A DNA stretch of 12,911 bases from Dinochytrium kinnereticum (taxonomy: Eukaryota; Chytridiomycota; Chytridiomycetes; Chytridiales; Chytridiaceae): assembly GCA_027604005.1 (NCBI GenBank), contig JADGJT010000531.1, forward strand, positions 1 to 12,911. Direction: 5' to 3'. Below are positions 1 through 12,911 of this stretch, piece after piece. The notes beneath the pieces were generated by a model. It did not search any database. It was not told where the DNA came from and saw nothing but the letters and a program-made list of their open reading frames with translations. The position numbers were made by a program, and so were the translations under genes. Within the stretch, counting starts at the first letter, position 1; each line of letters opens with the position of its first letter.

Positions 1-76
1 GGAGCGATGAAAGCGCGTCGGCACTTTTAAAGGTAAATCATACTGTGAAATCGCCGACAGGACTGAATATTTCACA
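1..76 (-). repeat. Start of the 3' LTR (U3 end, truncated by window edge)
   Basis: Read on the minus strand, the segment begins TGTGAAAT immediately after a purine-rich tract. The first seven bases are the exact reverse complement of the last seven bases of the other LTR (TTTCACA at 12837-12843), the usual TG...CA terminal inverted repeat bound by integrase. The rest of the LTR is outside the window. This part does not overlap in sequence with the 75 bp seen at the other end, so the LTR is at least about 150 bp. A TTTAAAAG stretch is the only TATA-like element and is weak. Confidence 0.88.
44..76. repeat. Inverted repeat at the LTR tip (8-bp arms)
   Basis: The terminal octamer of the LTR recurs inverted 17 bp further in: tgtgaaat at 44-51 and atttcaca at 69-76, a perfect 8-bp match. 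The LTR edge is thus itself a small palindrome-like structure, and an integrase-recognised tip sequence is present twice in opposite orientation. Its function is unknown. Confidence 0.7.
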
Positions 77-90
77 TTCTCCCGGTTTTT
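77..90 (-). promoter_or_regulatory. 3' polypurine tract (plus-strand primer)
   Basis: On the coding strand the 14 nt before the LTR start read AAAAACCGGGAGAA. They lie between the ORF2 stop and the TG of the 3' LTR, where the RNase H-resistant primer for plus-strand DNA synthesis must be. The tract is interrupted by two pyrimidines (CC), so the working primer may be only GGGAGAA. The same 14 nt plus TG recurs exactly at 4044-4059. Confidence 0.8.
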
Positions 91-108: not shown

Positions 109-3100
109 TTAAGAGGATAGTTCCGAATCACTATTGAAACGGAAACCTTCATTATCACGAGGGGTGATAATTCTGGCAGTAGTGGGATTAGCTGGAGATG
201 TATCAGCGTGTTTGCGGGGACGCCCGCGTTTACGAGGGGGGCTAATACGAGAAAGTGTATTACCTTTTCGGTTAGCTATATTTTTAAGGGAGCGCTGGCG
301 CATAGCGTACTCAATAGGGTTATGGACCCTTAGATCTTCCCAGTAGTCAGCAACCAGTGCGGCGGATAAGTCGTTTTCTGCAAACCACTTGTTGTGGTGT
401 GTCCCATAGCCTAACCATTTGACATGGTAGTAAAACTTCTTTTCACGCTGATTATAAGAATGGCGCGATAAGCGTTCAATATAGATCTCAGGATCATCAG
501 GGTCATCATTTTCAACAAGATCTGGGTCGTATCGTCGGAAAAGCTCACGAGATACGCCGACCTGTGCCTTGAAGTGGGGCGGGCGGCGTTCAAGAACAGC
601 CATATCGCGCCAAGCCTTAATTTCCGCTTCAAAATCGGAACGAGGGGAGCCAATAGCAGCTACGTCAGGGCTACTATCAGGCGGCACGTTATGGTATCGT
701 CTAAGGCGAGCAGCGTTAGCGACGCGAGGGAGCAAACGGCCATCGGGTAGGTATTCAACCAAATTAAATCGTTTCCTATCGGGCGATACGCCAATGACAC
801 GCATGGGGCCGGCCCAGCGAAAGGCGAACTTGTGAGAGGGATCGACGCGTCGCGCGTCAAAGGGTACAGAAACCCAGACGAGATCCCCAAGGTCAAAACG
901 CAGGGGTTCGAGCTTTCGGTTAGGTGTATCAGCAACGCGATCGCGATGATATTTGGCCAATAGCCCTTTAGCAAGGGCTAAGCGGGAGGTCAGACGCAGG
1001 ATGTGGTCCTTAGCATGAAGACGATGGTCTTTAAGTTTTTCGTCCAGGAATTTGTCGATAGCCTTAGACACGTTGGCAAGCACAGCTGGTGAAGACTGGG
1101 CGGTATCGTAGAAGTCATCAGAATTCGAGGCACTTCCGTTAGGTAGGAAACAGCCTTCGCGAGGAACCAAGAGGAGGCGGGGTGCTTGCTTCGACCCTTC
1201 CCATAAAGGTGAGCCAAGTGTTCCTTCAGAAACAAGGAGGGGTTGAATGAGATCTCTACCATAGTACTGCAAGCAGCCCGTGTGGGCATGGAGATAAAAC
1301 GGTAAGCCTTTAGTCGGGAGAGAAAGAAGCCGTCGATGAAACACATGGACAGAGCGGAAACCACGGACGCGGTTACAGGAGGTACCAATACACCCAATCA
1401 AATGCGAGTGTGTGGAAACCTTAATCTCGAAGAAATGAGGTAGGTCAACAGATTTGCCATCGACGGAGGTATTGACTATGTAAAGGACATCTAGATCAAA
1501 CTTGGACATTAACGCTGAAATCCGCGTGGCGGGTGTTGTATCAGCGACGCAGTCAAAGAGGTTGGAATCCCAAGCATTGAACATGGTCCGCCAATGACGG
1601 ACAGATGTCAGTGCTACTCTGTAAACAGGGGGATCGCCCTTGACAGTGTCATAAGATTGTGTTAAAATCTGAGCATGGTCTGGGTTGGCACGCTCGTCAT
1701 CGTAAACGTCTTTGGTGGAGAATCCAAATCTAAGATCAGCAGGAACGAGGGGCTCACGACCGAACATCAACAGGAAAGGTGTCTGTTGTGTGGTGGGGTG
1801 CACTGTTGTACGATAAGCAAACAACACATATGGTAATATATCATCCCAGTCGTCGTGCTCAGCCTGATTTATGTAAGCCCGAATCATCTGGCATAAAGTT
1901 TTGTTGAAACGTTCGACAAGCCCATTGGCACGCGGCCAGTAAGGCGATGAGAAAGACCGGTGATATCCTAAGGCTAAACTAACCTTCTTCATGAGTTCGC
2001 TCAAAAAGGGTTGGCCCTGATCAGAATGGAGACTAAGGGGGATACCATACCGGCAAAAACACTGTTCGACAATGGTGCGAGCGACAGTGTCGGCATTGAT
2101 ATCAGGGGTGGCATAGGCATCGGACCAGCGGGTAAAGTAGTCGGTAAGGACTACTATATAGGTGTTCCCTTTTTTGCTCTTTTTTAGAGGTCCCACACAG
2201 TCTATGGCGACCCTGTCCCATGGCTTTAAACCGAAGGGTACGGGAGTTACAGAACCGACTCTGAGGGGTATATCCTTGATTTTCTGGCACGTAGCGCAGG
2301 AACGTACATGAAGGGTGATATCGGTAGTAATAGTAGGCCACCAATATTTATCCAGCATGGTGGGTTTGATCTTTTGGTCGCCAAGATGTCCAGCAAAGAG
2401 GTCATCATGAACCTGGGCACAGGCTGTGGTCCGGAGCTCTATGGGTATGCAAAGGGCCACTCGGACGGGGGACCGTTTAAGCAGATAATCGGCAACATGG
2501 GTAACCTTATACAGTAGTGAGTCGCGCATGATCATAGTTTGAGACTGTCGGATCACCTCAATGCGGCGTTCATTATCGTCGGGGAGGAATCCATCTTCTA
2601 AAAAGAAGATAATATCACCAAAATCTGGATCTAATCGTTGGAGGTCACGGAAACGTTCAGAGGGTACGCGAAAGAGGGTGAGCTCCTCGGTTGAATTTAC
2701 ATCTTTCGATGGGTTGTGTAAGACTGGTAAAGTAATGTTCTCCGGGTCCGTAGAGAGGTTATCAGCAGCCAGCTGAAAAATAACGCATGCATGATCCATG
2801 AAACCATTAGGGTACTCGTGATCCACTGTCCATACGCCGGGGATATTGTTATCTATCATGGCATAATCAACTCTCCATATTGCTTTGAAGCGGTCTTGCG
2901 GGTTAAACCACGTATACCCAGGGTCATGTGGGTGTGAGTGACGGAAACCATCGATAAATCCCATCTTCAAGAAGAAATTGAACCAGAGTCGTTCTTCATC
3001 GGTGAATCCCGAGACTCCATCGAAACGATGAGGGCGGCACACATCAAAAGCGGTGTGGGAGATGTTAAAATCGCCAACAGCGATGACGTTGTTAGTCTCG

Positions 3101-6100
3101 CGGAGGTCTGCATTGAATGAGGAGAATGCCTTAAGGAACTTCATCTTGTAATGATGGCGATCAGGGCTGCTAGTACCATTGGGTACGTAAACATTAACAA
3201 CAGTCAAAAAAGGTAGGATAACTGTGAGACATCGTCCCTCGTCACCGAATGGTCCAGTATTAGGCTCGACTGGGTCAGTAGGTTCGTCGAGTTTAGACGC
3301 GTCCAAACCGCGGATAACGTTGAGGACGGGTATGTCTCTCTTCACCAAGGTAATAACACCGTTTTTTCCAGCCTGAAAAGCAGCATTTGTGAACACATTC
3401 CACTCTTTTAATTGGTGAAGGGACTTCCATACTTTTGAGTCTGTGTCCAGCATGGTTTCTTGGAAACATGCGACGGAGACATTTAGGTCTTCAAGATATT
3501 TTGCTAGGAATTCAACCTTGTTAAGGTCAATGCTTTCTTTCTTAAGCCCATAAAGGTGGTTCAAGAAAGCACGGAAACTGTTGACGTTCCAGCTCAAGAT
3601 CTTAAGATCCTTATCCATAAATATTGAGCGGGGTTCGGGACTTAACGGCCAGATCTGGGTCATTCGTGATTGAGTGCATATGGCTAGAGGGGTTGATGGT
3701 CGTGAAAACACATCGATCGAATGATATCTTCGTAAGGTCTCTACCGACAATGGTACTGAGAGACTTGAGATCTTAGTGATGGGATAGCTAAAGCAAAGCT
3801 TGCCTTTTGTGGGTGGTATAAGGGTACCGACAGAGATGACATGTGTAAGCTGCTTCACAGAGCTAGTCTGAACTATCCATAGTCTCTCGACGCAGGGCAG
3901 TTCATAGGGTTTGAGAATTTGTAGGCTTTTTTGATCTAAAATATTCTTAAGCTGTTGGGGGCTTAAGCAGATTATCACGTCTGTTTCTCCTTCGGAGTGT
4001 ATTGAGTCGTTGGTCATTATAGTTACTTCTTGACCCTGGTGGTCATTCTCCCGGTTTTTGACATTTGACGTAGGGGTTGGACTAACATAAGTGTCAATAT
4101 GAGAGCCAGCTCTCTTTCCCAAATAAACGATTTGCTGACAGGAAGGGTGGGTTTCTTCGGAATCTGGGAGGGTTATGGGTACCTCGGGAGGGAGTTCCTT
4201 ATATGCTCTAGACAGTGCATCAGCCACGGCCTGGCTTTTACCAGGTGTATATACTAATTCGATATCGTGATCGTGAAGTGCATATGCAAAGCGTGCAAAG
4301 CGGCCGGTTAAATCACCTCTTTTAAATAGTGGTAATAGAGCATTATGATCAGTTTCAATTCTATATGGTGTATTCCAAGTATAATGGGCAAATGTGTCGG
4401 CCGCCCAGACTACAGCGAGTCCTTCTCTATCAGTGTTAGAGTAATTTTGCTCAGTGGCTGAGAGCGTTCTGGACGCAAAGGCGACAGGATGGTAGACGCC
4501 ATTGTCGTTTATAAAAAGAGCGGCTCCAAGTCCGGTCTTCGATGCATCGCATGAAATTACTAGTTTATCACCGCGTTGTGGTAACTTCATAGTTACTTGT
4601 CTTTTTAGGATTGATATAAGCGAATTGAAGGCATCAGAGCAGCTCTGAGACCAACAAAATGGAGTGTCTTTTTTAGTCAGGGATATTAGAGGTTGAGCTA
4701 TATCCGAAAAATTTGGTACAAACCGACGGAAATATTGAGCAAGTCCAAGGAACATTTGAACCTCTTTTAAATTACGTGGTATTGGATATGCATCCAATGT
4801 TTTTATTTTGTCAGGGTCGGCCTTCAGGCCGTCAGCCGAAACAACATGTCCCAGGAAGGGTAGGACCGTAAAGCAAAAGTTACACTTTTTTGGTTTAAGT
4901 TTCAGATTGAACTCGACAAGGCGGTCAAAGACAGCGGCGAGGTTTTGAAAATGAGATGTGGTATCTCGTGAAAATATAATTATATCATCTATGTAGACCA
5001 TACATAGAGACCATTTTAGACCGGCGAGGACCATATCCATACATCGTTGGAAAGTCGGCGGGCTGTTAGTCAAGCCAAAAGGCATTACTTTATATTGCCA
5101 TTGTCCTCCTGAGGTGACAAACGCGGTTTTATGTCGATCCCTAGCTGGTATCTTAATCTGCCAAAATCCTGACAACAGATCTAGCGAGCTAAATAAAGTC
5201 ATGCCTGCTAGACGATCGAATGTCTCGTCAATGCGAGGTAAGGGGTATTTGTCTTTTATAGTAACCTCATTAAGTTTTCTAAAATCGGTACAGAAACGTA
5301 ATGTTCCATCCTTCTTTTTGGCCAGGCACACAGGTGCCGCATAAGGAGAGCGTGCAGGTTCTATTATATTATCTGATAACATTTTTTGAACATGTTCGTG
5401 TATAACTGCGGCACGTTCCAAACCTTCAGGGTAAGGGGCGGAGTTTGGCGGGCGCGCGAACGGTTTCTCTTCTATGGTATGTTCTCCTGGACTTTTGGTC
5501 CCGGTAACCACATAGTCCCTGAAAACATCGCCATATAAGATAATAAATTTATGAAGCTGATCCAAAAGATCGGGGTCAGTGATGTGAGATAGGTCGAACT
5601 TTTTTATCAACTCCTCATCGGAGATCTTTTCCGTTTCTTTAAAGTAATCCATCTTGTCTTCTAACGAAGTGTCTTTCGGCCGGAGGCGAGAGGGAACAGA
5701 GTCCTGAGGCAAGATGTCGGAGACATCGGTGACATCAGGTAGCGGAGATGCTGAAGTCAAATGACTCTTATCCGTGGCGACGACCTCTGCGTCGTCCTCA
5801 TCTTTAGGAATGAGGCGGGGTCTTTCTCCATTCTCTGTTACATAGGTGTCAAAAGAGTTCAAGGACATGGAGATGAGATGATCACAGGTGGCGGTCATCT
5901 CGGAGGTGACTAAATCTATTTCGTTATTTATAACCGGTACTGAGATATCAGGGGGTGAATCCATATATGGGTCGTGGACAGGATCAGCATTGCGGTTTAT
6001 GGAGTCAATAACACGTGAGAGCGTAGTCTCCGCTTGGGTATCAGGTGTTGGGGACAGATTATTATCACCTTCAGGTTGTTCGCCTCTTTTGGCTTTACCT

Positions 6101-9100
6101 ATCTTACATTCAAGGTGGGTCATGAAGTTAGTTAGTGATTTAACGTCACTGTTTGCCATAAGTTCGGCGACTAAAGCAATAAGGGTAGCGGGGTCATCCA
6201 TTAACTCGGGGGAGAGGGGTACAGTGAAGTCAATATCAGATGAGACATCATCGACCAAATAAGCAAGTCGCGTCCCTTTGGGTAAAACGACAGGTTCGTC
6301 GTGAATACAATCAACAAAAATCTTGAAAGGTTTCATATTTACTGATCTTTTCAATCTTTTAGAGTGAGACTTATCGCTGGCGTATGTGTATGAGGGTGGG
6401 CTGTCCGGTGGAAACAGATCATTATGATCATACAGGGTGCGTCGAACTAACGCGCACTTATCAAGCATTCGTTGTCGTGGGTTGAATGTGTAGGTGGATA
6501 AGGTCACGTCAGGTAATCTATTTAAGCGACACGGTACAGCTGTGCTAGTAAACGAAGTTAAGGTCACAGCCTCGGTGGTGTAGGCATAGATGAACGGGTC
6601 AGGGTTGACAAAAGTTGAAGCGTTAGCTATGAGTTTGAGAGGTGTCTCATGGGCCGTCACTTTCTCGTTACCATCAACTATCTCGGAGGTGAAGAACCGG
6701 AGCATTTGTCTGCTGCCGAGTAAGTCCATATGGAACAGGTTTATCACTGGGGTACCTAAGATGATATCACGTGGGCAGCGTTGTGTTATATTAAAGGTGA
6801 CAGTGCGTCTAGTACGGTAATCGACGCCTGGTGATAAGGAGAGGTGACAGTAGCCAATCAAAGCTTCGCGTCCACCAATACCAGTGGAATACATAGTTGT
6901 TTTATAAGGATACACTCTTATTCTATGTGAAGAACGTAGTCTTTTTAGAAAAGATAAAGTTATAACATTACAATTGGAGCCAGAGTCCAGCAAAGCGTCG
7001 TTGATGAAAGTGCCTTCAAGGCGAGCGCATATCTGAGCTATAACATGATCATTTCTTACTGGTAGTGTTTTTGGAACCGGATCCACAATAGTGGGGTCGG
7101 TTTGACAAACCGCATCGGCAGACAGCGGATTTTGGTAGGATGAATACGTAACTACGTATCGTGGATCCAGGGAGGTGTCTACTGACCTTAAATCGTCTGG
7201 GGTTTCCAATGATTTAAGCGAAGTGGTGTTGGTGTCAGATTCGTCGGCAGGTAAAGGTAAGCTGGCGAGGTCCTCAGGGGAAGGATCGCATGCCACAGCC
7301 GTATGGAGGACACCATCCTCTGGCAAATCACTAGCGACGAATGTGTTAGTCAGAATATGGGTATCAAGTGACATCCCATATTCCTGGCATTTTGACTCGG
7401 GTAAGTGTAATGTGTGAGATATATCTTCAACGTGCAGGTCACGCTGAAGTCGAGATAAAGTTATAGTTGTCGGTAATCGAGTAACTTTGTCAACATTGTA
7501 TTTAAATAGGTTGAGTTCATTATTTGTAGCAGTAATCGGGCTCACGTGTAATATATACCTTACAGCATTAATAGGAAAAGTTTCTAAAACCCATACGCGT
7601 GCAACTTCGGTTGGCAATGTTTCCTCTAAGTTTAGATGTAGGGTTTCTTTAAAGACAAACCTCTCCATTGACTCGGGGTCAAGGGGAAGAATGACATCAG
7701 TCTGAATGACATCAGTCTTGAGGGCGGTCGGTGTGATCGGCCCTAAGTTTTCTGATGCGTTTGGTAAAGACTTGGTAGAAGGGTCAAAGGTGACGATACG
7801 TCGCGTTTTCGAGCGACTCTTGGAACCTGAACCGGCAATATGAGATATAAAAGAGGTGACCCTATCGTGGCGGTCAGAGTCAGTGATGCCATGATCAGCA
7901 AAAAAGATTTCAGGAACCGATATTGACTTGGCTGCCAAGCCGATTAAATCAGAGCGTTGATCCCTAGATAATTGTTCGGGGATTGTATTAGATCCATGAT
8001 GGATCCACATTTTAGAATGAGTAGGGGTGGACAAAACCTTATCAAGTAACTTTGGTTGAGGAACTGAGTGGTGTCCACTGGGTATTGGTTTAACCTGAAA
8101 CAGGGGGAGAGTGACTGGAGCTGCAGTTACTGGAAGAAGGAGGTACTCGGGGGTCCTGACTTCGAGATCGCGAGTTCCAGCGGTATCAATTCGCCACAAT
8201 ATCATAGCTTCAGGCTCAGTAACCTGTTTACGCCAGTTATCAGGAGCGACCAGGACTGATAGTGGTGAACAATGTGTCAAGTGGCTCAGGAAAGGAGCGA
8301 GAATGGCCGAAGCATCTGCGGGTAAAAGGAGCAATGCTCCAAGTTTGTGTTTTATCAAATCAAATAAGAATGGTAGAGCACGGTCAGTGGAGAGCCAACA
8401 TAAAGTACTCGGATCCCAGTCATTAAAAATATCCCTGTCACTCTCATCAAAGTTCAGAAGAGTAACGTTTTTTGAAAACGAAAGTTCTTTATTAAAGGCA
8501 TTACAAAGAACAGACCCAACAGTCGTACTATCGGGGTAAAAGTGAGATCGCAGAGAAAAAACTAAGTGGTCAGGTACAACAGAGCCTGTCGTGGGTGTTT
8601 CTACTTTTTGGATACTGTTTAAATCAGTTTTGGTACAAGTTGGACTAAGATTCATACCTTTAAGAGATTGTAAAGCGGCTTCTATCTCAGGTAAGCGAGG
8701 GCACCTGTCGGTGAAATGGTCACTATTAGGTCCGCAAAGCACGCAATTTCTGGGAGGAGAAGGCCTGAAAGGCTTTGTATCGGCAGCGGTACGAGGTTGG
8801 TAAGTTCCACGGCGGTACTGCCCAACATCGCGCAAAAAGCGAGATCGGGTCACGTCATCAATAGGCCGGCCTACTTCGTTCTCATACACTTGAGTGGCGA
8901 ATGTTTCTAAGGTAACAAAACACTTTGGATCATCCTGAGGGTGGGGAAGGTAGTCAAAAGAAGAGGGGTCCTCTTGATGGCTCTCATAGATAAAGTCAAA
9001 GAGGTGGGTATTGAGGTCAGGACGTGATCTACGCTGACCAGTTGCTTCCAATATCATCCTCTTGATCTTAGCTTCGTCAATAGTGGTAGTCGATCGGGGA

Positions 9101-10962
9101 GCAGTACCAAGTGTGGGGAAACGCGACAAGTAGGTGGTAATGTCGTCGAACGACACGTCGGGATCATTCCAGGACGCGCCAAGTTTAGCATTGCCCGATG
9201 TATCTGTGCACTCATATGTGGATGACTTAACAATAGTGACCCACTGGTGATTCTGACACTTGTGAACAAAGTGCTCTTTAAGAGCAGCATCGGCTAATCG
9301 GTGGGCTGGAGGGAGTAGGGAGTTCTCAACGCTGATCTTCCTGAAGCGATCATCGGCATCTTCTGGAGTCGTATAGGGCCATCGGTCGCCGAGTACGTCG
9401 GACACCCAGGAGTCAACACTGTAACCCTTCGCAAAGCAATTCTTAACAAGTGACTCAAAGGCTTTCCAAGTATCTAAAAGCGCGAAGTTGGTCGCTAGGA
9501 TGTCTGAGGCTGGTCCTGTTAACCAGGATCTGACCTTGCATCCGTTAAAGCAACTGTCTAAGTCAGGGTAGGGACGAGTAGAGGCCGTCGTTGACGTTGA
9601 CGTCGTTGAGGCTGATGAGGTCGGAGGGACATCAGAATAGGTCTGTAGAGTCCGCTTCAAAGCAGCTAGGAAAGTGAGAGCTGCTCTGGGGGACGATCCA
9701 TCAAAAGAATGGAGGGCTGCGGCACGCTGTGCATCTTTGATCCTGAATCCACTGCTCATGGTATGGATTATGGGAGAAGGATTTCTGAGTTCAGTGTATG
9801 ACAAAACATGATCCTGCGCCACACGCGAATTGTCAGCCTCGTTCACTGAAGTCCACAAAGGACTTGGAGGGGCGGGGCGTCGCGCTGGACTAGCCCTAGG
9901 GGAGTGTCGCTGCAGACGGGCAGACTGGGACTCAAGGAATGTACGTGTTAAATCATCAAGTTGATCGCAGTGAGCGGTGAGTTGGTTGCGGTACCGAATA
10001 ATCTCGTCAATATAACTTCCTTCCTCACTAGGGAGACTCTCCCGGTTTTCGAGCGAAGGGTCACTCAGAGCAGGGGAGGGGTTTGAGTAAATTGATTCCT
10101 CGCCCCAATTGACAACGGTAGAGGGGCGGGTGAACCATAATGGTGGTAGATCCGTCGGGAACTTATAACTTTTATCTATTTTGATTTCGCGGCCAGTGGT
10201 CATGTATGGCCACAAGTGGAATAGCATACAGGCCCATAATGGTGAGCCGTCCCTTGGTAACGATAAGCTGTCGGCTAAGTCATGTAGTGTAATCGGAGAA
10301 GTCAGGTCAACAGAGTCTAGGTTCTGCGATTTAACTGGAATAAAGTCTATGAGGATAGCACCAGAGATGCCCCTTAGAACAACCTTAAACCAAATATAGT
10401 CGATACGGTTAAAACACAACTGTACTAATGGCGGTAAGCAGTCAGTATCGTATAACAAAGATCCAACAAAAGTAACAGATAACAGATCGCGATACTGACG
10501 CTCAGGTACTTCGCGAAAGAAGGCGAAAACGTTCAAAAACTCCCCAAGGGTGACCAACTCGGAGGTATACTGAGGCGGGGACCTGATTTTGAAAAGCCCG
10601 GTAATCGGCGGGGAGATTAATAGACTATAATCAGAAACAAAATATATCTCCAAAGTCTTATAATACTTGATCCACTCATCAGCGTGGGAATTGCGCCGCG
10701 GGACGGGGGGTACCGAGGAACCAAAAGAGAAGTCCGTGAATGTAAGGACAGGTCCAAGGACCATGTGGTCGTTATCTTCAGGCACATCATCGAGAACGAG
10801 GCGGATCTGATGTCGTTTCGGGTCAGAGGTATCGTAACCGAAAACGGCAATATGAGGGTAGCGCACTCCGTTTTCTAAGATAAGGAGTGGGAGGAGCGCA
10901 TATTTAAATGGAAAGGAGGAAAGGTCCCATCGATTAGATTTCCGAAAATCAAAAGGAGTCAT
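109..10962 (-). CDS. ORF2: Gag-Pol-like polyprotein with protease, RT, RNase H, ExoIII-type endonuclease, integrase and chromodomain
   Basis: A single frame of 3,617 residues from ATG (10960-10962) to TAA (109-111). The frame stays open to 11007, but no ATG lies upstream in it, so this start is chosen. Order: unassigned 1-401 with an Arg/Pro-rich stretch near 365-380; Gag-like 402-760 with a CCHC knuckle; unassigned 761-1300; protease D1326; acidic linker; RT with YIDD at 1990-1993; RNase H; linker 2250-2448; ExoIII/APE1-type endonuclease 2449-2733; integrase HHCC and D-D35-E 2852-3017; insertion; GPY/F-like module; chromodomain near 3491-3547; AT-hook 3577-3585. It should make the enzymes for reverse transcription in particles and nuclear integration, after cleavage by its own protease. 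Gag and Pol are fused without frameshift or stop, so their ratio must be set some other way. The endonuclease between RNase H and integrase is the oddity. All catalytic residues checked are intact. Confidence 0.95.
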   Translation of the reverse strand: MTPFDFRKSNRWDLSSFPFKYALLPLLILENGVRYPHIAVFGYDTSDPKRHQIRLVLDDVPEDNDHMVLGPVLTFTDFSFGSSVPPVPRRNSHADEWIKYYKTLEIYFVSDYSLLISPPITGLFKIRSPPQYTSELVTLGEFLNVFAFFREVPERQYRDLLSVTFVGSLLYDTDCLPPLVQLCFNRIDYIWFKVVLRGISGAILIDFIPVKSQNLDSVDLTSPITLHDLADSLSLPRDGSPLWACMLFHLWPYMTTGREIKIDKSYKFPTDLPPLWFTRPSTVVNWGEESIYSNPSPALSDPSLENRESLPSEEGSYIDEIIRYRNQLTAHCDQLDDLTRTFLESQSARLQRHSPRASPARRPAPPSPLWTSVNEADNSRVAQDHVLSYTELRNPSPIIHTMSSGFRIKDAQRAAALHSFDGSSPRAALTFLAALKRTLQTYSDVPPTSSASTTSTSTTASTRPYPDLDSCFNGCKVRSWLTGPASDILATNFALLDTWKAFESLVKNCFAKGYSVDSWVSDVLGDRWPYTTPEDADDRFRKISVENSLLPPAHRLADAALKEHFVHKCQNHQWVTIVKSSTYECTDTSGNAKLGASWNDPDVSFDDITTYLSRFPTLGTAPRSTTTIDEAKIKRMILEATGQRRSRPDLNTHLFDFIYESHQEDPSSFDYLPHPQDDPKCFVTLETFATQVYENEVGRPIDDVTRSRFLRDVGQYRRGTYQPRTAADTKPFRPSPPRNCVLCGPNSDHFTDRCPRLPEIEAALQSLKGMNLSPTCTKTDLNSIQKVETPTTGSVVPDHLVFSLRSHFYPDSTTVGSVLCNAFNKELSFSKNVTLLNFDESDRDIFNDWDPSTLCWLSTDRALPFLFDLIKHKLGALLLLPADASAILAPFLSHLTHCSPLSVLVAPDNWRKQVTEPEAMILWRIDTAGTRDLEVRTPEYLLLPVTAAPVTLPLFQVKPIPSGHHSVPQPKLLDKVLSTPTHSKMWIHHGSNTIPEQLSRDQRSDLIGLAAKSISVPEIFFADHGITDSDRHDRVTSFISHIAGSGSKSRSKTRRIVTFDPSTKSLPNASENLGPITPTALKTDVIQTDVILPLDPESMERFVFKETLHLNLEETLPTEVARVWVLETFPINAVRYILHVSPITATNNELNLFKYNVDKVTRLPTTITLSRLQRDLHVEDISHTLHLPESKCQEYGMSLDTHILTNTFVASDLPEDGVLHTAVACDPSPEDLASLPLPADESDTNTTSLKSLETPDDLRSVDTSLDPRYVVTYSSYQNPLSADAVCQTDPTIVDPVPKTLPVRNDHVIAQICARLEGTFINDALLDSGSNCNVITLSFLKRLRSSHRIRVYPYKTTMYSTGIGGREALIGYCHLSLSPGVDYRTRRTVTFNITQRCPRDIILGTPVINLFHMDLLGSRQMLRFFTSEIVDGNEKVTAHETPLKLIANASTFVNPDPFIYAYTTEAVTLTSFTSTAVPCRLNRLPDVTLSTYTFNPRQRMLDKCALVRRTLYDHNDLFPPDSPPSYTYASDKSHSKRLKRSVNMKPFKIFVDCIHDEPVVLPKGTRLAYLVDDVSSDIDFTVPLSPELMDDPATLIALVAELMANSDVKSLTNFMTHLECKIGKAKRGEQPEGDNNLSPTPDTQAETTLSRVIDSINRNADPVHDPYMDSPPDISVPVINNEIDLVTSEMTATCDHLISMSLNSFDTYVTENGERPRLIPKDEDDAEVVATDKSHLTSASPLPDVTDVSDILPQDSVPSRLRPKDTSLEDKMDYFKETEKISDEELIKKFDLSHITDPDLLDQLHKFIILYGDVFRDYVVTGTKSPGEHTIEEKPFARPPNSAPYPEGLERAAVIHEHVQKMLSDNIIEPARSPYAAPVCLAKKKDGTLRFCTDFRKLNEVTIKDKYPLPRIDETFDRLAGMTLFSSLDLLSGFWQIKIPARDRHKTAFVTSGGQWQYKVMPFGLTNSPPTFQRCMDMVLAGLKWSLCMVYIDDIIIFSRDTTSHFQNLAAVFDRLVEFNLKLKPKKCNFCFTVLPFLGHVVSADGLKADPDKIKTLDAYPIPRNLKEVQMFLGLAQYFRRFVPNFSDIAQPLISLTKKDTPFCWSQSCSDAFNSLISILKRQVTMKLPQRGDKLVISCDASKTGLGAALFINDNGVYHPVAFASRTLSATEQNYSNTDREGLAVVWAADTFAHYTWNTPYRIETDHNALLPLFKRGDLTGRFARFAYALHDHDIELVYTPGKSQAVADALSRAYKELPPEVPITLPDSEETHPSCQQIVYLGKRAGSHIDTYVSPTPTSNVKNRENDHQGQEVTIMTNDSIHSEGETDVIICLSPQQLKNILDQKSLQILKPYELPCVERLWIVQTSSVKQLTHVISVGTLIPPTKGKLCFSYPITKISSLSVPLSVETLRRYHSIDVFSRPSTPLAICTQSRMTQIWPLSPEPRSIFMDKDLKILSWNVNSFRAFLNHLYGLKKESIDLNKVEFLAKYLEDLNVSVACFQETMLDTDSKVWKSLHQLKEWNVFTNAAFQAGKNGVITLVKRDIPVLNVIRGLDASKLDEPTDPVEPNTGPFGDEGRCLTVILPFLTVVNVYVPNGTSSPDRHHYKMKFLKAFSSFNADLRETNNVIAVGDFNISHTAFDVCRPHRFDGVSGFTDEERLWFNFFLKMGFIDGFRHSHPHDPGYTWFNPQDRFKAIWRVDYAMIDNNIPGVWTVDHEYPNGFMDHACVIFQLAADNLSTDPENITLPVLHNPSKDVNSTEELTLFRVPSERFRDLQRLDPDFGDIIFFLEDGFLPDDNERRIEVIRQSQTMIMRDSLLYKVTHVADYLLKRSPVRVALCIPIELRTTACAQVHDDLFAGHLGDQKIKPTMLDKYWWPTITTDITLHVRSCATCQKIKDIPLRVGSVTPVPFGLKPWDRVAIDCVGPLKKSKKGNTYIVVLTDYFTRWSDAYATPDINADTVARTIVEQCFCRYGIPLSLHSDQGQPFLSELMKKVSLALGYHRSFSSPYWPRANGLVERFNKTLCQMIRAYINQAEHDDWDDILPYVLFAYRTTVHPTTQQTPFLLMFGREPLVPADLRFGFSTKDVYDDERANPDHAQILTQSYDTVKGDPPVYRVALTSVRHWRTMFNAWDSNLFDCVADTTPATRISALMSKFDLDVLYIVNTSVDGKSVDLPHFFEIKVSTHSHLIGCIGTSCNRVRGFRSVHVFHRRLLSLPTKGLPFYLHAHTGCLQYYGRDLIQPLLVSEGTLGSPLWEGSKQAPRLLLVPREGCFLPNGSASNSDDFYDTAQSSPAVLANVSKAIDKFLDEKLKDHRLHAKDHILRLTSRLALAKGLLAKYHRDRVADTPNRKLEPLRFDLGDLVWVSVPFDARRVDPSHKFAFRWAGPMRVIGVSPDRKRFNLVEYLPDGRLLPRVANAARLRRYHNVPPDSSPDVAAIGSPRSDFEAEIKAWRDMAVLERRPPHFKAQVGVSRELFRRYDPDLVENDDPDDPEIYIERLSRHSYNQREKKFYYHVKWLGYGTHHNKWFAENDLSAALVADYWEDLRVHNPIEYAMRQRSLKNIANRKGNTLSRISPPRKRGRPRKHADTSPANPTTARIITPRDNEGFRFNSDSELSS
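208..234 (-). other. AT-hook motif at ORF2 C-terminus
   Basis: Residues 3577-3585 read RKRGRPRKH, with the GRP core and flanking basic residues of an AT-hook, a minor-groove AT-DNA binder. It lies about 30 residues after the chromodomain and 33 residues before the stop. It may add DNA binding, or a nuclear localisation signal, to the integrase tail. The motif match is clear; the function is inferred. Confidence 0.75.
322..492 (-). other. Chromodomain of the integrase tail
   Basis: Residues about 3491-3547 show the chromodomain pattern: an aromatic near IYIERL, then a variable basic loop, YYHVKWLGYG (W3516) and NKWFAENDL (W3526). These correspond to the strand carrying K-W-x-G-Y and the following W-E/A-x-x-x-L segment. 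Chromodomains bind methylated histone tails and steer chromovirus integration to heterochromatin. The aromatic cage residues appear to be the two tryptophans plus an N-terminal tyrosine; this is inferred by pattern only. Confidence 0.85.
703..900 (-). other. Integrase C-terminal GPY/F-like module
   Basis: Residues about 3355-3420 contain LGDLVWV (W3363) and, 20 residues later, RWAGPMRVIGV (W3383, G3385, P3386). This is the layout of the SH3-like GPY/F module after the gypsy integrase core, here with Met in place of the aromatic. Its role is DNA contact and multimerisation. A helix-rich segment (3296-3345) precedes it, as in other gypsy integrases. Confidence 0.8.
1078..1667 (-). other. Unrecognised insertion of about 195 residues in the integrase C-terminal region
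   Basis: Between the end of the integrase core (about residue 3080) and the helical segment leading to GPY/F (about 3296) lie some 195-215 residues that match nothing I know. Most gypsy integrases have a few tens of residues here. The insert looks globular, with alternating hydrophobic strands, Cys and His residues and no obvious low complexity except a Ser/Asp-rich end. It could be a separate domain; no function is proposed. Confidence 0.55.
1723..2505 (-). other. Integrase zinc-binding domain and DDE catalytic core
   Basis: Residues about 2820-3080. The N-terminal part begins at RDSLLYKV, typical of this position, and carries H2852, H2859, C2889 and C2892 (HHCC zinc finger) with the YWWP motif between. 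The core has D2921 (VAIDCVG), D2981 (HSDQGQPF) and E3017 (GLVERFNKT), with exactly 35 residues between the second D and the E, the retroviral D,D35E signature. It processes LTR ends and joins them to target DNA in the nucleus. No missing residue was found. Confidence 0.95.
2764..3618 (-). other. Exonuclease III/APE1-type endonuclease domain (EEP superfamily) inside Pol
   Basis: Residues 2449-2733, starting at an in-frame Met. Motifs in order: ILSWNVNSFRA (N2459, N2461), CFQET (E2502), VYVPNG (Y2592), GDFNISH (D2631, N2633), a GFTDEER segment, FRHSHPHDPGYTWF, RVDY (D2699) and MDHACV (D2723, H2724). This is the full metal-binding and catalytic set of Mg-dependent AP endonucleases. The GFTDEER...FRH...GYTW stretch is characteristic of ExoIII/APE1 repair enzymes rather than the endonuclease of LINE elements. 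Expected activity is AP-site incision and 3' phosphodiesterase or exonuclease on DNA. Its position between RNase H and integrase suggests release from the polyprotein by the element's protease. Confidence 0.92.
3706..3885 (-). other. Candidate repeated module, copy 2 (residues 2360-2419)
   Basis: This 60-residue stretch in the linker between RNase H and the endonuclease begins RLWIVQT. It aligns without gaps to residues 1122-1181, which begin RVWVLET: I count 10 identities in 60 (including R, W, T, F, Y and K), with most other hydrophobic positions conserved. Strand-like alternation suggests a small beta domain. Identity is low, so homology is suggested, not proven. Confidence 0.4.
4044..4059 (-). 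promoter_or_regulatory. Candidate central polypurine tract
   Basis: On the coding strand AAAAACCGGGAGAATG is identical over 16 nt to the 3' polypurine tract plus the first two LTR bases (75-90). By chance, about one such match in more than 100,000 windows of this size would be expected. It lies inside ORF2 (encoding K-N-R-E-N near residue 2302), in the linker before the endonuclease. Lentiviruses and Ty1 are known to carry a second internal polypurine tract that starts plus-strand synthesis mid-genome; that role here is inferred. Confidence 0.7.
4213..4569 (-). other. RNase H domain
   Basis: Residues about 2132-2250 with D2139 (SCDASKTG), E2180 (DREGLAV), D2205 (ETDHNALL) and D2248 (VADALSR), the four acidic residues of gypsy RNase H. 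It degrades the RNA strand of the RNA/DNA hybrid and makes the polypurine primers. It directly follows RT through a usual-looking connection. Confidence 0.93.
4618..5481 (-). other. Reverse transcriptase domain
   Basis: Residues about 1828-2115. Seen are the primer-grip side LAKKKDGTLRFCTDFRKLN, KYPLPRID, first catalytic D1928 (LFSSLDLLSGFWQI), MPFGLTNSPPTFQ, YIDDI with D1992 and D1993, and FLGHVVS (H2039), followed by the thumb/connection motif FLGLAQYFRRFVPNFS. These are the canonical gypsy RT blocks in order, with no disruption. It makes element cDNA from genomic RNA. Confidence 0.97.
6703..7065 (-). other. Retropepsin-like aspartic protease
   Basis: Residues about 1300-1420: hydrophobic strand then LLDSGSNCNVI with catalytic D1326, and 73 residues later DIILGTPVI (1399-1407), the second conserved strand-helix motif. 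DSG replaces the more common DTG, which is known in gypsy proteases. It works as a dimer and should cut the polyprotein into its parts. There is no tyrosine recombinase and no other protease. Confidence 0.88.
7420..7599 (-). other. Candidate repeated module, copy 1 (residues 1122-1181)
   Basis: Partner of the stretch at 3706-3885; it starts RVWVLET and ends in a segment with TITLSRLQRDL. It lies in the long unassigned region between the zinc knuckle and the protease. A third, weaker relative may be residues about 188-236 (W191, then ILIDFIPV and SPITLHDLADSL). Evidence is pattern similarity by eye only. Confidence 0.38.
7689..7718. repeat. Perfect 15-bp tandem duplication in ORF2
   Basis: The unit gaatgacatcagtct occurs twice in a row (7689-7703 and 7704-7718). 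It is five codons long and keeps the frame, giving the protein repeat TDVIQTDVI in the unassigned region before the protease. It looks like a recent replication-slippage or RT-jump duplication. Confidence 0.9.
8683..9759 (-). other. Gag-like segment with CCHC zinc knuckle
   Basis: Residues 402-760 begin at an internal Met (MSSGF). They have helical, capsid-like character, including a stretch with WLTGPASDILATNF and a following helix-rich region. They end with a knuckle at C740, C743, H749 and C754. The spacing is C-X2-C-X5-H-X4-C, one residue longer than the usual X4. Zinc knuckles of nucleocapsid bind genomic RNA for packaging. Capsid assignment is by position and character, not by a firm family match. 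Confidence 0.65.
10038..10049 (-). promoter_or_regulatory. Third polypurine-tract-like copy near the start of ORF2
   Basis: The coding strand reads AAAACCGGGAGA, a 12-nt exact match to the core of the 3' polypurine tract. It encodes E-N-R-E-S near residue 305, in the same reading frame as the central copy (K-N-R-E-N). It could be a further plus-strand start or a coincidence; it is shorter than the central copy. Confidence 0.35.
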
Positions 10963-11053
10963 GATATTCAAGATGAGCAGAGTATGACCCAATTTATTTT
11001 TGTTTATTCAACTACAGATACCACAAAAAATGGGGGATCTTACAGATCAAGAG
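10963..11053 (-). other. Gap between ORF1 and ORF2 with two AATAAA motifs
   Basis: The 91 bp between the ORF1 stop and the ORF2 ATG are A/T-rich on the coding strand. They carry AATAAA at 11003-11008 and again at 10993-10998, plus a GTAAGA donor-like hexamer just after the ORF1 stop. ORF1 and ORF2 are in different frames and do not overlap, so simple ribosomal frameshifting cannot join them. The motifs fit a short ORF1-only polyadenylated transcript or may be chance in A/T-rich DNA. Confidence 0.5.
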
Positions 11054-12097
11054 TTAAACAACTTTGGTCAAAGAAGAGGTGGAGGGGTCGAGCTGCATAG
11101 ACGACTCAAGGGCGTCGGTAGCACGGGCTGAGGTAGTCGGAGTAGCCGAGGTCGCCTCAGAGGCAGTCGACTTGCCTTTAGGGTCTTTGCGGTTTGGTTT
11201 AGGCTTGCTCGCAGCCTGAGTAGGTGGGAAGGTTGACCTCGGGTCGAAGGCCTTAGAACTAACCCAGTTAGGTGGGAACTCAGGACGAGAGGACCTGTTG
11301 TTCCAAAAGGTAAGGAAACGAGCTGAAATAGATGAAAGTTCGTGGTCGGTCAACGAGGGTAAGTCAGACAGATCAGGGAACGAGACTAAAAGGTAACCGC
11401 CGTCTTTACCACGGATAGCGCGATAGATCAAAGAAAGTCGATGGATAACTGACTTCCTAGCTCTATGAAGGCGGACGTGGAAAGTGTGTAAGGCACTAGA
11501 AAGAGCCTCGTCGTCGTCGCGGACTCGGTTGACGTATTCGATACCTGGAATGGTGTCGACAATAGGATCGATCAAGCGGAGGATCTCCAGCTGGTGGGTG
11601 AGCTGGGCGACGCTTTCCTCGCGATCTGCAGGAACAACAAAAGGAGGGGGAGGCGTATTGGCTCGTGGACGCTTCGCGGCAGGATCCTCAGCGAAACGAG
11701 AGTTCCTTTTCCCGGTACGGACGTCGTCGGAGTCAGGGAAGGGAACCTCAGGACCAGGTATCGGGCGCGAGGTAAGATTATTCTGGACTGACCGCGGCAC
11801 AGGGGCAGGTCGGGATGGACCAGAAGTAGGACCAGACTCTCGTACTCGATCTCGTTCGCCCCAAACTTGGGCGATCTCCAGCAGACGGGAGGTAGGGTCG
11901 GCGATCGTCGGGTTCTCACGAACAGTGGTGATAAGGTCGTTAATCGCCGTCAGCTCCGAAAAGCGTTGGTGGTTGAGATCCCTCGTGTTATTGATGAGAT
12001 TATGGCCGCCAATGAAACGGGGATCAGACCGGGGTCTGTTAGGTCGTCTTCCACGACCACGAGGGGTAAAAGAGTGTTGGTCTTTAGAGGACGACAC
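11054..12097 (-). CDS. ORF1: unrecognised basic protein, start codon not identified
   Basis: An open frame ending at TAA (11054-11056); 347 residues if counted from a GTG at 12095-12097, and open further to 12184. No ATG occurs in it except at residue 334, so the true start must come from splicing, a non-AUG codon or elsewhere. Visible parts: N-terminal RG/RP-rich tract (12-24), Pro-rich middle, AKRPRA nuclear-signal-like cluster near 141, Pro run 149-153, a probably helical region (159-270) with LHRARKSVIHRLSLIYRAIRG, and a Ser/Thr/Lys-rich tail (295-345). No zinc knuckle or enzyme motif. Being first in the element and basic, it may be an RNA-binding or accessory Gag-type protein; that is inference from position only. 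The antisense frame here is open too (11484-12113), so openness alone is weak evidence, but the composition looks protein-like. Confidence 0.6.
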   Translation of the reverse strand: MSSSKDQHSFTPRGRGRRPNRPRSDPRFIGGHNLINNTRDLNHQRFSELTAINDLITTVRENPTIADPTSRLLEIAQVWGERDRVRESGPTSGPSRPAPVPRSVQNNLTSRPIPGPEVPFPDSDDVRTGKRNSRFAEDPAAKRPRANTPPPPFVVPADREESVAQLTHQLEILRLIDPIVDTIPGIEYVNRVRDDDEALSSALHTFHVRLHRARKSVIHRLSLIYRAIRGKDGGYLLVSFPDLSDLPSLTDHELSSISARFLTFWNNRSSRPEFPPNWVSSKAFDPRSTFPPTQAASKPKPNRKDPKGKSTASEATSATPTTSARATDALESSMQLDPSTSSLTKVV

Positions 12098-12836: not shown

Positions 12837-12911
12837 TGTGAAAACTCTGGCCCCAGGCGGGGAGCTATAAGCCCTTGCCACCCAGAGTTCACGGGAGTCG
12901 GAGTATTCGGC
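12837..12911 (-). repeat. End of the 5' LTR (U5 end, truncated by window edge)
   Basis: The coding strand ends GTTTTCACA one base before the primer-binding site and mirrors the TGTGAAA of the 3' LTR start. Inside, aactctgg (12843-12850) and ccagagtt (12882-12889) form an 8-bp inverted repeat around 31 bp, with a small CCCC/GGGG hairpin in the loop, so the RNA end may fold into a stem. The rest of the LTR, promoter included, is beyond the window. Confidence 0.86.

What the first reader, a model, noticed from the sequence alone, without database searches (positions are those of the whole stretch)
2764..3618. A complete ExoIII/APE1-type AP endonuclease lies between RNase H and integrase of an LTR retrotransposon
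All metal-binding and catalytic positions are present (N2459, E2502, Y2592, D2631, N2633, D2699, D2723, H2724), along with ExoIII/APE1-type segments (GFTDEER, FRHSHPHDPGYTWF). LTR elements integrate with a DDE integrase and do not need such an enzyme; LINE elements use a different APE branch for target-primed transcription. Here both an intact integrase and an intact repair-type endonuclease occur in one polyprotein. This suggests capture of a cellular repair gene. Possible uses are trimming blocked 3' ends of cDNA, removing abasic sites, processing plus-strand flaps or gaps at the central polypurine tract, or a second integration route.
Basis: partly seen in the sequence, partly recalled or inferred. 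Interest (0 to 1): 0.88.

Follow-up and report, generated by a model that had tools for sequence, protein, structure and literature searches.

The report
DNA-repair nuclease inside fungal LTR retrotransposon
A young-looking LTR retrotransposon in a zoospore-forming fungus carries, inside its own polyprotein, an intact-looking DNA-repair nuclease of the exonuclease III type between its copying and its integrating enzymes, which suggests that the element repairs or finishes its own DNA copy before integration.

The parts
2758..3606 (-). ExoIII-type EEP domain (aa 2463-2745; N2469, E2512, Y2602, D2641, N2643, D2709, D2733, H2734 in the TTG numbering)
   Evidence: Pfam PF03372, NCBIfam xth over cut-off, PDB, conserved columns, model and fold search
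109..10992 (-). Gag-Pol-type frame, 3627 codons and stop
8701..8745 (-). zinc-knuckle-like CVLCGPNSDHFTDRC (read by eye; no Pfam match)
   Evidence: position; no Pfam match for it
6973..6987 (-). aspartic protease motif DSGSN
   Evidence: position; Asp_protease_2 only E 0.013, under cut-off
4843..5319 (-). reverse transcriptase (RVT_1)
4273..4653 (-). RNase H (RT_RNaseH / RT_RNaseH_2, aa 2114-2240)
4044..4059 (-). exact 16-nt copy of the tract before the 3' LTR; possible central PPT, in the RNase H-EEP linker
2275..2448 (-). integrase zinc-binding domain H2C2
1936..2214 (-). integrase core (rve); D2931, D2991; E3027 just beyond
337..480 (-). chromodomain
   Evidence: 23.9 bits, under the cut-off of 25.1, in the whole protein; 26.1, over it, in the C-terminal piece
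75..90 (-). tract AAAAACCGGGAGAA + first two LTR bases (3' PPT position)
3..76 (-). start of the 3' LTR (TGTGAAATATTC...), cut at the contig end
   Evidence: 99% to bases 1-74 of the 1054-bp LTR on C30
12837..12911 (-). end of the 5' LTR (...TTTTCACA), cut at the contig end
   Evidence: 100% to bases 980-1054 of the LTR on C30
11054..12097 (-). upstream frame of 347 aa (GTG), no Pfam match; role unknown

Best explanation
A Ty3/Gypsy chromodomain retrotransposon took an ExoIII-family gene, long ago, into the linker between RNase H and integrase. The domain is made as part of the polyprotein, so it should be packaged in the particle with reverse transcriptase and integrase. There it would act as a base-excision-type nuclease on the element's own cDNA: it nicks at abasic or uracil sites and cleans blocked 3' ends, so that a sound double-stranded copy reaches the integrase. 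Shown: the domain, its place, its kept catalytic residues, its predicted fold, a second element with the same order, integrase-type target duplications. Inferred: packaging, cleavage, activity, substrate and timing.
For: xth family over cut-off; PDB best matches are ExoIII/AP endonucleases; eight catalytic positions kept, each present in 81 of 81 prokaryotic rows; model pLDDT 79, pTM 0.82, nearest solved structures Mth212 (a DNA uridine endonuclease), Mm3148, ExoA; uninterrupted frame over all domains; same order EEP then integrase in decayed C361; C269 keeps E and Y, C361 keeps E, Y and GDxN although the EEPs are only 38-43% identical to the window's. Analogy (recalled): nonprimate lentiviruses carry dUTPase at the same place, between RNase H and integrase, against uracil in cDNA.
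Against: No activity or packaging data. Likely substrate loops are changed: S for G at 2472 (81 of 81 G), F for N at 2657 (62 of 81 N), three residues missing before W2706 including an 81-of-81 G, M for S at 2732 and C for P at 2736 (81 of 81 each), so AP-site activity may be altered or lost. EEP identity between copies (38-43%) is lower than that of integrase (45-61% in pieces). C22 has GKFN for GDFN. No sign of selection in the one codon-position test possible. Elements of this lineage without the domain could neither be found nor excluded.
Confidence: 0.45

Rival explanations
1. The domain works at a plus-strand discontinuity: a central PPT starts a second plus-strand piece, and the ExoIII-type 3'-5' exonuclease trims the upstream 3' end at the central overlap or gap so that the strands can be joined.
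For: The 16-nt tract that abuts the 3' LTR recurs exactly in the RNase H-EEP linker; of 200 shuffles one reached the three matches seen with up to 2 mismatches. 3'-5' exonuclease activity is a recalled property of ExoIII.
Against: The tract holds CC and is not a pure purine run; four other groups of repeated 13-mers occur on the sense strand, one of them a close tandem. Other elements with a central PPT do without such a nuclease (recalled). A displaced plus strand leaves a 5' flap, which a 3' exonuclease does not cut.
Confidence: 0.2
2. The domain is kept for binding (DNA, RNA or a host factor) or as a spacer, not for cutting, as Crc shows for an ExoIII-like fold (recalled).
For: Substrate-loop changes; Crc is among the PDB matches (E 1.4e-7).
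Against: All eight catalytic positions are kept, which a pure binder would not need.
Confidence: 0.18
3. The domain gives a second integration route (nicking the target, as in LINEs).
For: Only the superfamily likeness to LINE endonucleases.
Against: Two insertions, the window's own element (CTCA) and the solo LTR on C30 (CGCC), have 4-bp target duplications and exact TG...CA LTR ends; integrase triad present; LINE-type score E 0.032.
Confidence: 0.05
4. Chimera: a cellular ExoIII gene was joined to the element by mis-assembly or by a chance insertion into this one copy.
For: EEP DNA like the window's occurs once in the assembly.
Against: One frame runs through both junctions; a diverged element on another contig has the same order; the host's APE1-like and APE2-like genes are different.
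Confidence: 0.02

Closest known systems
Exonuclease III / AP endonuclease family (Mth212, Mm3148, B. subtilis ExoA, NApe, APE1)
   Different: At most 36% identity in the sets compared; changed likely substrate loops; part of a retroelement polyprotein
Ty3/Gypsy chromoviruses of fungi
   Same: Order RT, RNase H, integrase, chromodomain; LTRs TG...CA; 4-bp target duplication
   Different: Extra EEP between RNase H and integrase; very long frame (3627 codons)
Nonprimate lentiviruses with dUTPase between RNase H and integrase (recalled)
   Same: An enzyme linked to base damage or uracil at the same place in pol
   Different: Another enzyme and fold: it acts on DNA, not on dUTP; no dUTPase was reported in the Pfam scans
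LINE elements with APE-type endonuclease
   Same: EEP superfamily domain in a retroelement
   Different: Another branch (best LINE-type chain E 0.032); there it is used to nick the target (recalled), here the insertions bear integrase-type duplications

Membership tests
ExoIII/xth AP endonuclease family | Family profile over curated cut-off | tested here: met
   TIGR00633 141.8 bits, cut-off 99.05; the narrower TIGR00195 was under its cut-off (133.9 against 182.55)
ExoIII/xth AP endonuclease family | Catalytic and metal residues | tested here: met
   8 of 8 kept, each 81 of 81 in the comparison rows
ExoIII/xth AP endonuclease family | Fold | tested here: met
ExoIII/xth AP endonuclease family | AP-site nicking or 3' exonuclease activity | not testable with these tools
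   needs an assay; substrate-loop changes make it uncertain
Mth212-type DNA uridine endonuclease | Nicks directly at uracil | not testable with these tools
LINE APE endonuclease | Sequence nearer to LINE endonucleases than to ExoIII | tested here: not met
   LTX (an L1 endonuclease variant, by recall) E 0.032 against ExoIII 7.2e-26
Ty3/Gypsy chromovirus | RT-RNase H-integrase order and chromodomain | tested here: met
   the chromodomain passes its cut-off only in the C-terminal piece
Ty3/Gypsy chromovirus | LTRs TG...CA with a short fixed target duplication | tested here: met
Ty3/Gypsy chromovirus | tRNA primer site after the 5' LTR | not tested
   TGGGGGCCCAACC follows the LTR end by one base; not compared with tRNAs

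The most novel reading that the evidence does not exclude
A lineage of fungal LTR retrotransposons carries its own base-excision nuclease, with substrate loops retuned for replication intermediates, and uses it, perhaps with a central PPT, to proofread or finish its cDNA in the particle: a nuclease counterpart of the lentiviral dUTPase, acquired independently at the same place in pol.
Probability: 0.3. Interest if true: 0.85.

Novelty: new variant of a known kind. Interest (0 to 1): 0.64.

Why it matters
LTR elements are thought to need only protease, RT, RNase H and integrase. A repair nuclease kept at the place where some lentiviruses put dUTPase would suggest that base damage in cDNA is a wider limit on retroelements, and one enzyme domain makes that testable. 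It would also be an EEP in a retroelement without the LINE-type role in integration.

Tried and rejected
Distribution: the protein database search could not be made, so whether elements of other species carry the domain is unknown. Scans of viral contigs with the EEP, the RT and a two-row RT alignment gave no relative. Phage and plasmid records gave matches in 10 and 197 records; those shown with annotation are ExoIII or endonuclease genes, and many shown bear none. No DNA-level match in plasmids.

Second integration route: rejected as main role by two 4-bp target duplications. LINE-derived EEP: rejected by scores. Recent capture from this host: not supported; host APE1-like exon pieces (C123) rank 82 of 83 in likeness to the window in each of three segments. 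That comparison is biased: the 80 genome loci were the best of 566 confirmed matches, found with one GF..EER pattern from an alignment led by the window, and whole sequences were set against exon pieces. One origin of the retro-EEPs is only moderately supported: window with C269 94/82 on long branches; for the short C22, C529 and C361 pieces one, two and one of 82 prokaryotic rows score higher than the window does.

Selection: codon positions of C269 against C361 differ in 10, 5 and 10 of 107, 108 and 108 places, no clear sign; C361 is decayed. Third-position GC of the EEP (0.495) lies within the range of the rest of the frame (0.360-0.513), so composition gives no hint of a recent foreign insert. 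EEP-less sisters: C83 gives no match after RNase H and tells nothing. The window alone shows no LTR pair, because each LTR is cut at a contig end. Fold search with VIA-align lists no LINE endonuclease among the 50 entries shown; that absence is no test.

Full report
The element. Chitin synthase matches on four contigs (8 matches) and a radial-spoke RSP3 gene together point to a zoosporic fungus. On the minus strand one frame of 3627 codons (109-10992) encodes, in order, a long N-terminal part with a zinc-knuckle-like motif, a DSG protease motif, RT, RNase H, the EEP, the integrase zinc-binding and core domains, and a chromodomain. The knuckle is read by eye, the protease matches Pfam only below its cut-off, and the chromodomain passes its cut-off only when the C-terminal piece is scanned alone. 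Apart from the EEP this is the order of Ty3/Gypsy chromoviruses (recalled).

Ends and insertion. The window's two ends are LTR edges: 3-76 matches bases 1-74, and 12837-12911 bases 980-1054, of a complete 1054-bp LTR on C30. That LTR begins TG, ends CA and is flanked by CGCC on both sides. I call it solo because only LTR sequence of the window matches there. C350:2-78 repeats window 1-77, and the start of C9 repeats the window's other end; both then run into other sequence, and the four bases next to the LTR edge are CTCA in both. This is what an assembler would leave of one insertion with near-identical LTRs and a 4-bp target duplication. That the LTRs are near-identical is inferred from this, not read. 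The insertion thus looks like ordinary integrase work.

The domain. The EEP (2758-3606) scores 141.8 bits to the xth model, cut-off 99.05. Against PDB sequences: archaeal and bacterial ExoIII E 7e-26 to 9e-21 for the best eleven, plant ARP 3e-17, human APE1 about 3e-15, E. coli ExoIII 7e-10, APE2 0.0085, LTX (an L1 endonuclease variant, recalled) 0.032. Of 63 columns conserved in at least 85% of 81 prokaryotic rows (the 80 loci and one plasmid gene) the window agrees in 42, among them all eight catalytic ones. The loci were found with one GF..EER pattern, so that stretch is conserved by choice. The window differs where substrate contacts are likely: S for G at 2472 (81 of 81), F for N at 2657 (62 of 81), three residues missing before W2706 including a G (81 of 81), M for S at 2732 and C for P at 2736 (81 of 81 each). 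That these loops touch DNA is recalled from APE1. The AlphaFold model of a 332-residue piece, from 25 sequences, has pLDDT 79 and pTM 0.82. Foldseek ranks Mth212, a DNA uridine endonuclease, first; by Z, Mth212 (34.1), Mm3148 (34.0) and ExoA (33.7) tie, with APE1 (1bix) at 32.3.

Other copies. DNA like the window's EEP was found nowhere else in the assembly. Protein search gives C269 (38%, end of contig), C361 (43%, start of contig), C529 (37%, end of contig), C22 (39%, start of contig) and C42 (36%), which I read as the host's APE2. On C361 the EEP pieces (273-740) are followed by the linker and integrase pieces (909-1826) in the window's order, the integrase-side pieces at 45-61% identity (57 and 63%). 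C361 is decayed, with stops and frameshifts, and differs from C269 in 25 of 323 aligned bases, gaps aside. C269, C529 and C22 run into contig ends. So the EEP stands before the integrase in the 2 elements of this lineage in which that stretch could be read; this is few. C22 has GKFN for GDFN. An RT relative on C83 (82% and 71% in two pieces) shows no match after RNase H.

Origin. Pieces of an APE1-like host gene lie on C123 (each below the xth cut-off, read), and an APE2-like gene on C42. The APE1-like pieces are less like the window than 81 of 82 prokaryotic rows in three of three segments, with the biases told under Tried and rejected. In a tree of 84 rows the window and C269 join at 94/82 on long branches, apart from the prokaryotic rows. 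An old capture is likely; the donor is open, because no eukaryotic APE1 set was included.

Central PPT. AAAAACCGGGAGAATG, the tract before the 3' LTR with the LTR's first two bases, recurs exactly at 4059-4044 in the RNase H-EEP linker. With up to two mismatches the 13-base core gives 3 matches (exact at 77-89 and 4046-4058, one mismatch at 10037-10049); the shuffle mean is 0.51, and 1 of 200 shuffles reaches 3. Against: four other groups of repeated 13-mers exist on the sense strand, and the tract holds CC, while no pure purine run of 12 or more is found.

Mechanism. Packaged with RT and integrase, an ExoIII-type enzyme could nick abasic or uracil sites, clean 3' ends, or trim the upstream end at a central discontinuity. 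The place recalls lentiviral dUTPase (recalled). The changed loops leave room for a changed substrate, or for a binding role. Which of these holds is not shown.

Literature. The paper search failed at every try. One survey of fungal LTR elements, PMC3248453, was reached: I saw its outline with abstract and six passages. They mention additional domains in complex, multiply inserted elements, but no EEP. I do not claim that the architecture is unreported, only that I recall no report.

Noticed in passing
window 4044-4059, 75-90 and 10037-10049: Tract before the 3' LTR recurs exactly (16 nt) in the RNase H-EEP linker and, with one mismatch in 13, near the 5' end of the frame: possible extra plus-strand starts.
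   Followed up: partly
window 3-76 and 12837-12911; C350:2-78, C9:1-77, C30:82406-83459: Window bounded by LTR edges; neighbouring contigs carry the flanks with a 4-bp duplication; a solo LTR on C30; about 30 further LTR pieces of 68-100% identity.
   Followed up: partly
window 11054-12097 (minus): 347-aa frame upstream of Gag-Pol, GTG start, no Pfam match; it ends 47 bases before the big frame opens, so not a simple frameshift pair.
   Followed up: no
window, aa 1-400 and about 3120-3480 of the big frame: Long stretches without Pfam match before the knuckle and between integrase core and chromodomain.
   Followed up: no
L042 (C58) 415-1605; C58:1576-1802: Another Gypsy integrase with chromodomain (29% to the window's) directly followed by a 74% match to the end of this LTR.
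   Followed up: no
L040 (C230), L039 (C272), L043 (C497): RT frames that I read as DIRS-like (recombinase-like frame downstream), LINE-like and copia-like; not classified by profile beyond RVT_1.
   Followed up: no
L152 (C123:27300-29000): Host APE1-like gene in pieces; its first piece reads CWNIVSLQSS where the family has WNVNG(L/I)RA, so it may be unusual itself.
   Followed up: no
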